Source of the DNA: Rheinheimera texasensis DSM 17496
GTDB taxonomy: Bacteria > Pseudomonadota > Gammaproteobacteria > Enterobacterales > Alteromonadaceae
Reading direction: 5' to 3'
Length of the DNA: 64,000 nt
NCBI RefSeq assembly: GCF_000711985.1
Contig: NZ_JONU01000007.1
Location: forward strand, 1-64,000
Position numbers and translations under genes: made by a program. Under the pieces are notes generated by a model, which searched no databases, had not been told where the DNA came from, and saw nothing but the letters and a program-made list of their open reading frames with translations. Numbering within the stretch: the stretch's first letter is position 1; each line of letters starts with the position of its first letter. Shown here piece by piece: positions 6-869 of the stretch.

Positions 6-103
6 AGTACAGTGAAATCGGGCTTTCAAAAAGCCAATAGTTTGGCTTTTTGCCGATTGAACGGCCCTGAGCTCTGCGAAGGGCATCAAGGCTCCCAATA
101 CAC
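6..103 (+). repeat. Structured repeat unit A (second-type unit)
   Basis: This is the first of several similar non-coding units. Hairpin 1 has arms AAAAAGCCAA (28-37) and TTGGCTTTTT (42-51) around a TAGT loop. An outer stem AATCGG (16-21)/CCGATT (53-58) encloses it with a six-base bulge on the 5' side. Hairpin 2 has stem GCCCT (64-68)/AGGGC (80-84) closing the loop GAGCTCTGCGA (69-79). The tail ATCAAGGCTCCCAATA leads into an intrinsic terminator. I read this as the 3' unit of a transcript that begins outside the window. The secondary structure is seen in the sequence; that it is an RNA on the plus strand is inferred from the terminator direction. The family is not recognised. Confidence 0.6.
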
Positions 104-133
104 AAACCCCGCTCAGAGAGCGGGGTTTTTTGT
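104..133 (+). terminator. Intrinsic terminator after repeat unit A
   Basis: CCCCGCTC (107-114) pairs with GAGCGGGG (118-125) across an AGA loop and is followed by TTTTTT. A-rich sequence on the 5' side makes it partly bidirectional. It directly follows the tail of unit A. Confidence 0.85.
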
Positions 134-166
134 ATTTAGATTCTGGCGGTTTTACTTCGCGTAGAG

Positions 167-275
167 TAGGACAGCGACACCGGGAATTAATGATGCCAAC
201 AGTTTGGCATCATTCCGGGGGAGCACACCCGAAGCTCTGCGAGGGTGCAGACTATCAAGAAGCCGCGATGTTGAA
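167..275 (+). repeat. Structured repeat unit B (first-type unit)
   Basis: Hairpin 1 is a perfect 11-bp stem, AATGATGCCAA (189-199)/TTGGCATCATT (204-214), with loop CAGT. An outer CCGG (180-183)/CCGG (215-218) stem leaves a five-base bulge on the 5' side, the same layout as unit A. Hairpin 2 is CACCC (226-230)/GGGTG (243-247) with loop GAAGCTCTGCGA. The tail (248-275) differs from that of unit A and has no terminator; the next unit starts within about 20 bases. Positions 221-275 recur exactly at 612-666. Confidence 0.6.
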
Positions 276-377
276 GCCTTAAAATCTCCAACGCCAACAG
301 TTTGGCTCGTCTGGCCGTAACACGGCGGCTGAACAATCCCGAGCTCTGCGAGGGATATGAAGGCTCCCAATAAAGCC
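276..377 (+). repeat. Structured repeat unit C (second-type unit)
   Basis: Hairpin 1 keeps GCCAA (293-297)-CAGT-TTGGC (302-306) with weaker outer pairing. Hairpin 2 is ATCCC (336-340)/GGGAT (352-356) closing loop GAGCTCTGCGA (341-351). The tail ATGAAGGCTCCCAATA matches the tail of unit A at all but one position and runs into a terminator. Units B and C therefore look like one two-unit transcript. Confidence 0.6.
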
Positions 378-407
378 AAAAGGCCCACTCATTCGAGTGG
401 GCCTTTT
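378..407 (+). terminator. Intrinsic terminator after repeat unit C
   Basis: AAAAGGCCCACTC (378-390) and GAGTGGGCCTTTT (395-407) form a perfect 13-bp stem with loop ATTC. The symmetrical A/T ends let it act in both directions. Confidence 0.85.
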
Positions 408-420
408 GCTTTATGGCATC

Positions 421-540
421 CTGACGGTCTATTGCTCAGCCGGACGTCGCACGGGGGCAATCGCATGCGACAAAAACGTCTGGAACGTTTTTGGACCGCT
501 TCAGCGGGCTGCGAAGCGGCAAACCCCATGGATGGGCTGA
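421..540 (+). repeat. Diverged structured repeat unit between C and D
   Basis: AAAAACGT (472-479) pairs with ACGTTTTT (485-492) across CTGGA, taking the place of hairpin 1. CCGCTT (496-501) pairs with AAGCGG (514-519), and its loop ends in CTGCG, as the conserved loop of the other units does. Flanking GTCGCA/TGCGAC copies may add an outer stem. The order and spacing match the other units but the loop sequences differ, so membership of the family is an inference. Confidence 0.35.
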
Positions 541-546
541 GCAACC

Positions 547-666
547 AGTACAGTGAATCAGGGCTTTCGAAACGCAAACAGTTTTGCGTTGCTGGCTGTC
601 ACACAGCTGATGAGCACACCCGAAGCTCTGCGAGGGTGCAGACTATCAAGAAGCCGCGATGTTGAA
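547..666 (+). repeat. Structured repeat unit D (first-type unit)
   Basis: The leader at 547-568 matches that of unit A at 6-27 with only two small differences. Hairpin 1 is a perfect AACGCAAA (571-578)/TTTGCGTT (583-590) stem with loop CAGT. Hairpin 2 is CACCC (617-621)/GGGTG (634-638) with loop GAAGCTCTGCGA. The last 55 bases are identical to the end of unit B. As in B, there is no terminator directly after it. Confidence 0.6.
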
Positions 667-869
667 TTACAGTGCAGCAAACAGTTTTGTGTTCTTCCTA
701 CAAAGAAACCCAGATAGCGAATGGCTTGATTATTAATAAGCTACCCACAGATTTACGAATGTGGCTTAGTTAAAAATTTCCAAATATCTCCGGCATAGCC
801 GACTGTTCGCTGGTTGATCGCGCTAGGTTGTGGCATAAAGGAGATCTTTTTTCACTGCTTTCTGAATTT
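667..869. other. Decayed repeat unit E and gene-free stretch
   Basis: A short remnant of hairpin 1, CAAA (678-681)-CAGT-TTTG (686-689), follows unit D where the second-type partner unit would be expected. No conserved loop or terminator follows. The rest up to the lipoprotein gene is AT-rich, with no gene or clear promoter that I can support. Confidence 0.4.

What the first reader, a model, noticed from the sequence alone, without database searches (positions are those of the whole stretch)
6..690. Tandem structured non-coding repeats with a conserved GA(A)GCTCTGCGA loop and changing stems
Four clear units each carry two hairpins. In the second hairpin the loop is nearly invariant, while the closing stem changes in a compensated way: GCCCT/AGGGC, CACCC/GGGTG (twice) and ATCCC/GGGAT. 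In the first hairpin the core CAA-CAGT-TTG (TAGT in one unit) is kept while the flanking stem changes wholly but stays paired. Paired changes with a fixed loop are the sign of selection on RNA (or single-stranded DNA) structure. I recognise no Rfam family, attC, REP or retron element with this pattern. A protein-binding or base-pairing small RNA family is a fair inference.
Basis: partly seen in the sequence, partly recalled or inferred. Interest (0 to 1): 0.85.

Follow-up and report, generated by a model that had tools for sequence, protein, structure and literature searches.

The report
Structured repeat element after ribosomal RNA genes
A small two-hairpin element of unknown function, with a strongly conserved shape but freely changing letters, is repeated behind ribosomal RNA genes of Rheinheimera and also sits beside 5S, transfer RNA and other genes in more distant bacteria, so it looks more like a hairpin repeat that spreads than an ordinary small RNA gene.

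Summary
Window 6-690 is the tail of a ribosomal RNA operon of a Rheinheimera genome: on another contig of the genome a true 5S gene is followed by a related array. The units carry an ~80-nt element, E, with two hairpins: H1 (tandem G.A foot, 6 bp, 5-nt bulge, 11 bp, 4-nt loop) and H2 (5 bp, tandem G.A, GC-TCT-GC tip). On 63 distinct copies 26 of 30 pairs change on both sides (covariation 0.545; slid controls at most 0.124). Rfam has no match. E was found in 22 of 22 genomes of the genus and, patchily, beyond it. It lies beside 5S or tRNA genes on either strand, abutting copies of the gene end, and after mRNA terminators; one such site is filled in 3 of 22 genomes. The arrangement is that of tRNA-linked repeats (E. 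coli rrA/rrB/rrF) and of published downstream 5S pseudogenes with insertions; E itself I did not find described. I judge E a structure-conserved interspersed hairpin repeat, probably mobile, that helps build such arrays. A small-RNA role is possible but unshown; no enzyme and no movement was seen.

The parts
12..84 (+). element E, unit 1: H1 12-62 (5-nt bulge 22-26, loop 38-41), H2 64-84
   Evidence: R2 match 6-86, 92.0 bits, E 1e-19
174..247 (+). element E, unit 2: H1 174-224, H2 226-247
   Evidence: R2 match 168-249, 76.8 bits, E 3.7e-16
251..358 (+). chimeric unit 3: H1 core 292-305, extra hairpin, H2 336-356
   Evidence: R2 match 20.0 bits, E 0.009; H2 good, H1 outer stem different
547..640 (+). 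chimeric unit 4: H1 core 574-587, extra hairpin, H2 617-638
   Evidence: R2 match 38.7 bits, E 3.6e-07; 612-666 is a perfect copy of 221-275
669..696 (+). degenerate H1 fragment (GCAAACAGTTTTGTGTT core)
   Evidence: 94% to the unit-4 core over 17 nt (D4); no R2 match
89..152 (+). copy of the 5S trailer and terminator
   Evidence: 93.8% identity over 65 nt to the stretch behind the true 5S gene of contig C10
104..128 (+). intrinsic terminator stem-loop, T tail following
   Evidence: scanner hit (2 found in 1-900, 1.3 expected in shuffles); matches the 5S terminator of C10
361..372 (+). second copy of the trailer start AGGCTCCCAATA
   Evidence: 12 of 12 nt identical to the 5S trailer
377..408 (+). 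terminator-like stem-loop behind unit 3
   Evidence: perfect 14-nt inverted repeat; the scanner scores it as a terminator only on the minus strand, the plus-strand T tail being weak
430..546 (+). block of hairpins with GGA in two loops (471-493, 524-536), resembling E. coli RrB by eye
   Evidence: read from the sequence; folds with z -2.84; not tested further

Best explanation
The array is the far end of a Rheinheimera rRNA operon, built of partial 5S, trailer and terminator copies (an array of the tRNA-linked-repeat or 5S-pseudogene kind) that carry copies of an ~80-nt two-hairpin element E. E is a short interspersed repeat whose folded shape (H1 with a 5-nt bulge and a tandem G.A foot; H2 with tandem G.A and, mostly, a TCT tip) is kept while its stem letters change. 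Shown by calls: structure and covariation, rRNA context, spread, filled and empty sites, gene-end copies next to E. Inferred: E spreads as a folded single strand (hairpin DNA, or RNA copied back) and joins behind ...GG, often in hairpin loops or stable-RNA genes; the joined unit carries its own copy of the gene end, so the gene stays whole; arrays then grow by repeated joining and by exchange between rRNA operons. The enzyme is unknown.
For: Covariation on 63 distinct copies and on one copy from each of 17 genomes of 16 genera (29 of 30 pairs with both-side changes, 430 of 494 cells paired; alignment fitted to the model). Tandem G.A kept or replaced mainly by full Watson-Crick pairs. A true 5S gene lies in front of a related array. 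R1 matches in 22 of 22 genus genomes. Both strands relative to the neighbouring gene: 7 genomes same strand, 4 opposite, 1 both, among the 12 of 15 scanned genomes with a 5S or tRNA gene 43-335 nt from E. Gene-end copies beside E of at least 52, 13, 30, 16 and 15 nt. Filled in 3 and empty in 19 of 22 genomes at one mRNA 3' site. G precedes E in 39 of 53 flanks; joined flanks pair slightly better than re-paired ones, 0 of 200 permutations. 5 of 6 and 1 of 5 rRNA loci carry E in two closed sister genomes.
Against: No mobilising enzyme, circle or movement was seen. In the genus arrays all 21 matches have the strand of the 5S gene, as an RNA role would predict. The three filled genomes at the one tested site are those nearest in sequence (100, 92, 86%), so it may be a single event. 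The joint at AGG|A was read by eye, holds in only part of the cases and not in the window itself (..TACA|GTGA). The joined-flank effect is small and includes related loci. 3 of the 15 scanned genomes have no 5S or tRNA gene by E, and 11 of 26 E-bearing genomes outside the genus were not scanned; the scanned ones were chosen by me. H2 has a GGA-type tip instead of TCT in G360 and G650.
Confidence: 0.55

Rival explanations
1. E is a functional RNA module: a processed small RNA or protein-binding part of rRNA read-through transcripts (as RrA/RrB/RrF of E. coli), also used at other 3' ends.
For: RNA-like structure with tandem G.A pairs and deep covariation; all 21 matches at 5S loci of the genus are on the strand of the 5S gene; E. 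coli has Hfq- and CsrA-binding RNAs at the same place (PMC8144298).
Against: Antisense to the neighbouring 5S or tRNA gene in G068, G147, G577, G582 and partly G360; behind terminators at 6 of 9 dispersed sites of the own genome; missing from 4 of 5 rRNA loci of G021 and from 19 of 22 genomes at one mRNA site. No transcript data.
Confidence: 0.25
2. E has no mobility of its own: it is an old part of stable-RNA trailers, multiplied by tandem duplication and gene conversion among rRNA operons, and its dispersed copies moved inside larger repeats. Paired changes arise by palindrome-templated mutation.
For: Tandem arrays and exact 55-nt duplication; at least 52 nt of gene end plus terminator duplicated with E in G577; several dispersed copies lie in longer shared blocks.
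Against: Templated correction (a process recalled, not tested) should remove the 5-nt bulge and the tandem G.A, which persist; E copies in the genus share letters at unlinked sites with different flanks.
Confidence: 0.15
3. E is a REP/BIME element moved by a RAYT (Y1) transposase.
For: Short imperfect hairpins in mosaics with other hairpins at intergenic sites; Y1_Tnp genes in 19 of 22 genus genomes.
Against: No Y1_Tnp match in the own genome, G009 or G019, which have 19, 21 and 14 E matches; no E in 11 stretches (37 kb) around 11 of the 37 Y1_Tnp matches.
Confidence: 0.05

Closest known systems
tRNA-linked repeats (TLRs), rRNA type: E. coli rrA, rrB, rrF between terminators T1 and T2 (PMC8144298; abstract, introduction and found passages read)
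   Same: Place behind 5S, terminators on both sides, a copy of the gene end next to the repeat, hairpins; the window block 430-546 also has GGA loops.
   Different: E has its own conserved structure; E. coli rrnB has no R2 match (E limit 0.05). E also occurs away from stable RNA genes and on the opposite strand.
5S rRNA pseudogenes with insertions behind rRNA operons, Pseudoalteromonadaceae and Peptococcaceae (PMC7812874; found passages, including part of the abstract, read)
   Same: 5S-like fragments with large hairpin insertions at distal ends of rRNA operons, several copies, each preceded by a terminator; thought untranscribed.
   Different: There the inserts were not described as one structural family or found beside tRNAs; whether any of those inserts is E was not tested.
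REP/BIME interspersed palindromes with RAYT (recalled; PMC2817692 seen only as a search listing)
   Same: Short imperfect hairpins in intergenic mosaics.
   Different: No RAYT link found; stems vary with compensation instead of being near-identical copies.
Integron attC sites and tRNA-end integrating islands (recalled)
   Same: Structure-driven hairpin with a bulge; a carried copy restores the end of the target gene.
   Different: No constant attC boxes seen in E; no integrase searched for; the unit carries no gene.

Membership tests
tRNA-linked repeat (rRNA type) | lies downstream of a 5S or tRNA gene | tested here: met
   related array behind 5S on C10; 12 of 15 scanned genomes outside the genus
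tRNA-linked repeat (rRNA type) | 18-19 bp at its 3' end identical to the 3' end of the upstream gene | tested here: inconclusive
   10 of 11 rRNA loci of G015 and G021 have a downstream copy of 12 nt of the 5S end with at most 1 change; exact copies of 13, 15 and 16 nt in G582, G073, G360 and at least 52 nt (13 of them tRNA) in G577; in the window only the trailer and the first 8 nt match clearly
tRNA-linked repeat (rRNA type) | transcribed and processed, binds Hfq and CsrA (E. coli rrA/B/F) | not testable with these tools
   no transcript or binding data
5S pseudogene with insertion | 5S-like fragment with an insert at the distal end of an rRNA operon, preceded by a terminator | tested here: met
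REP/BIME with RAYT | Y1_Tnp (RAYT) gene in the genome, flanked by the element | tested here: not met
   0 in own genome; absent in 3 of 22 genus genomes rich in E; no E near 11 of 37 Y1_Tnp matches
known Rfam RNA family | match at gathering score | tested here: not met
   0 in the window; at E-bearing loci only rRNA and tRNA genes; one sub-threshold Trp_leader match, E 0.16, 24.8 bits against 41
integron attC site | conserved R and L boxes and an IntI integrase | not tested
   no constant boxes seen by eye; integrase not searched

The most novel reading that the evidence does not exclude
E is a new kind of miniature mobile element: a folded ~80-nt strand that joins at GG (often AGG|A) sites in hairpin loops and stable-RNA genes while supplying a copy of the gene's end, and it is one source of tRNA-linked repeats, a class described since 1978 and long without a known function.
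Probability: 0.3. Interest if true: 0.8.

Novelty: new variant of a known kind. Interest (0 to 1): 0.6.

Why it matters
It gives a defined, searchable structural family (an 80-position covariance model with tandem G.A motifs) for repeats that pile up behind rRNA and tRNA genes and coincide with contig breaks, links published 5S pseudogenes and tRNA-linked repeats to an interspersed element, and offers a concrete mechanism (a carried gene end) that can be tested.

Tried and rejected
Known Rfam RNA: none at gathering score. REP/RAYT: not met. attC: considered from memory only. E. coli RrB as a homologue of E: no R2 match in E. coli rrnB. E as a purely tRNA- or rRNA-linked repeat: 36 of 40 fetched loci show no tRNA gene (several of those are rRNA-linked), and 9 of 14 R2 matches of the own genome lie outside the arrays at contig ends. 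Phage or plasmid carriage: no match in plasmids for two queries, none for one exact pattern in viral contigs, and one 42-nt phage-collection match to the terminator part. The idea of an invariant H2 loop was dropped for tandem G.A plus TCT. Literature searches that showed no description of E. The first genome contigs pattern had a wrong spacer length and found nothing; a corrected, slightly looser one gave 15 stretches. No candidate enzyme was found.

Full report
WHAT IS THERE. The window is G000:C5:1-64000, the start of a contig. Bases 1-696 hold an array of repeats. The genus is Rheinheimera, judged by contig-length matches of sister genomes to named records: G008 contig 288766 = R. mesophila IITR-13, G016 contig 615468 = R. 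faecalis YR1, G019 contig 76675 = Rheinheimera sp. 4Y26, G009 contig 65459 = a Rheinheimera MAG. Related array letters lie at the ends of contigs C4, C8 and C12, and at C10:343-658 behind a true 5S rRNA gene (RF00001, 86.4 bits, C10:232-346). So the finding is the tail of a ribosomal RNA operon; that contigs break there because the operons are repeated is my inference. Window 89-152 is 93.8% identical over 65 nt to the trailer and terminator behind that 5S gene; its first 12 letters recur at 361-372.

THE ELEMENT. A structure-only scan showed that full copies share one geometry. With 23 chosen copies, 18 of 21 pairs had changes on both sides, covariation 0.606 against 0.075-0.109 for slid partners and 0.193 for shuffles; four of five measures beat every shuffle, the number of pair types did so in all but 7 of 500. 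A model from these (R1) found 65 matches with E at most 2e-10 in 50 chosen loci. On their 63 distinct rows I tested pairs not in R1: a foot of four pairs outside H1, an extra inner H1 pair, and four pairs inside the supposed H2 loop. Result for the whole structure: 26 of 30 pairs with both-side changes, 404 such cells, covariation 0.545 against 0.046-0.124 when slid, 0 of 500 shuffles reaching any of the five measures. The foot reads GTGA..GAAC (32 rows) or GCGA..GAGC (6), that is tandem G.A with a T-A/C-G pair that mostly switches in step, or is fully paired GTGA..TCAC (7); the other rows are singles or gaps. The H2 'loop' is GA/GA in 41 rows, a full Watson-Crick set in 15 (TT/AA 6, TG/CA 3, TC/GA 3, three singles) and something else in 7, then mostly GC-TCT-GC. 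With the best copy of each of 17 loci from 17 genomes of 16 genera, 430 of 494 cells pair and 29 of 30 pairs change on both sides (the alignment was fitted to the model, and five of the loci were in it). In G360 and G650 the H2 tip is of a GGA type instead.

WHERE IT OCCURS. R1: 31 of 98 relatives, including all 22 genomes of the genus; 10 of 68 genera. R2: 15 of 295 genomes of the order at E 0.001, 11 of 99 genera, and 8 of 369 of the class, 7 of 272 genera. These counts include the own genome. They are lower bounds: in each genome only the best 47, 15 or 12 candidates were scored with strict filters, and the own genome shows 19, 14 and 12 matches in the three calls. Of the 14 matches in the own genome, 5 are in the contig-end arrays and 9 elsewhere; 6 of those 9 have an intrinsic terminator within 110 nt upstream, read by eye. 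At one mRNA 3' site (gene recognised by me as rpoH from its last codons, not tested), E is present in G000, G009 and G018 and not found in the other 19 of 22 genomes. These three are the most similar sequences there (100, 92, 86%), so this may be one event. In the closed sister genomes E is in 5 of 6 rRNA loci of G015 and 1 of 5 of G021; all 21 matches at 5S loci of the genus have the strand of the 5S gene.

GENE ENDS. Outside the genus 26 genomes had a match. I scanned loci of 15 of them, chosen by me, for Rfam genes: 12 have a 5S or tRNA gene 43-335 nt from E, 3 do not (G072, G048, G114). Not scanned: G035, G060, G078, G082, G095, G139, G202, G381, G419, G647, G650. Relative to the gene, E has the same strand in 7 (G049, G073, G108, G115, G129, G149, G339), the opposite in 4 (G068, G147, G577, G582) and both in G360, with seven copies upstream in sense and two downstream in antisense. 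The gene-end copy beside E measures at least 52 nt at tRNA-Pro (G577, 13 nt of tRNA plus terminator), 13 nt at tRNA-Ser (G582), 30 nt of the 5' end upstream and 16 nt of the 3' end downstream at tRNA-Met (G360) and 15 nt at 5S (G073). Read by eye, the copy stops at ...GG and the intact gene continues with A in G577, G582, G073, G339 and G360; in G049, G115, G129 and G108 the 5S continues with T. In the window's genus the junction differs (..TACA|GTGA, or ..CCAGG|GTGA in G015). Among 53 flanks outside the genus arrays the base before E is G in 39. Joined flanks pair with each other better than re-paired ones (mean -13.5 against -12.55 kcal/mol, sd 0.31, 0 of 200 permutations), a small effect that includes related loci.

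WHAT IT IS LIKE. E. coli rrnA, rrnB and rrnD carry tRNA-linked repeats between T1 and T2, with 18 bp of the 5S end repeated; their RNAs interact with Hfq and CsrA in vitro (PMC8144298; abstract, introduction and found passages read). Downstream 5S-like remnants with insertions, each preceded by a terminator, are reported in Pseudoalteromonas and called likely untranscribed and possibly pseudogenes (PMC7812874; found passages read). The window's array is of this kind. E, as a defined family with copies beside tRNAs and at unlinked sites, I did not find described (searches: in a library that lacks most subscription journals). The block at 430-546, with GGA in two loops, resembles RrB by eye; E. 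coli rrnB has no R2 match.

MECHANISM. The common architecture, intact gene - terminator - E - gene-end copy, is what integration of a small circle carrying a gene end would give, the logic of tRNA-end islands (recalled). I therefore favour a mobile, structure-recognised hairpin repeat, with later growth by exchange between rRNA operons. No enzyme, circle or movement was seen. A RAYT is unlikely. A small-RNA role is the main rival: sense orientation in the genus arrays and RNA-type structure favour it; antisense copies and patchy presence weigh against it. Palindrome-templated mutation (recalled process) could produce paired changes without selection, but should remove the bulge and the tandem G.A, which persist.

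LIMITS. Sequences are related, so shuffles overstate significance; R-scape was not available. E-values of the models are rough. Single-sequence folding supports only some units.

Noticed in passing
window 430-546: Block of hairpins, two with GGA in the loop (471-493, 524-536), resembling the CsrA-binding RrB repeat of E. coli; similar blocks lie behind 5S in G015 and G021.
   Followed up: partly
L211 4390-5731 (genome G360, another family): tRNA-Met gene with seven E copies upstream, each with a copy of the first part of the tRNA, and two antisense copies downstream with copies of its last 16 nt.
   Followed up: partly
L069 (G009:C41:6206-6323, minus strand): 5S gene that runs directly into an E unit after GAGAGTAGTACA; its 5S score is 69 bits against 86 for other copies of the genome, perhaps a chimeric 5S.
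   Followed up: no
L124 and L127 (own genome C8:23438, C4:1100406): Two E copies preceded by a second H1-like hairpin (32.9 and 30.1 bits) that begins GGTAAAAACGG, seemingly at the stop codon of the gene before it.
   Followed up: no
L120, L122, L144, L157, L158: E inside a longer repeated block of several genus genomes, twice about 1.8 kb apart in G012; in L144 an upstream 94-aa open frame overlaps it.
   Followed up: no
L131-L134 (G016, G012, G014, G008): An E copy in the same place in four genomes, between a tRNA-Ser/Arg/Arg cluster and tRNA-Trp, on the strand opposite to the tRNAs.
   Followed up: no
L148-L150, L154, L156, L126, L129: E is embedded in mosaics of other short hairpin repeats of the genus (GTACAGGATGTAC, GTCCATGGAAGGAC, ACGTGGTACC runs) just behind terminators.
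   Followed up: partly
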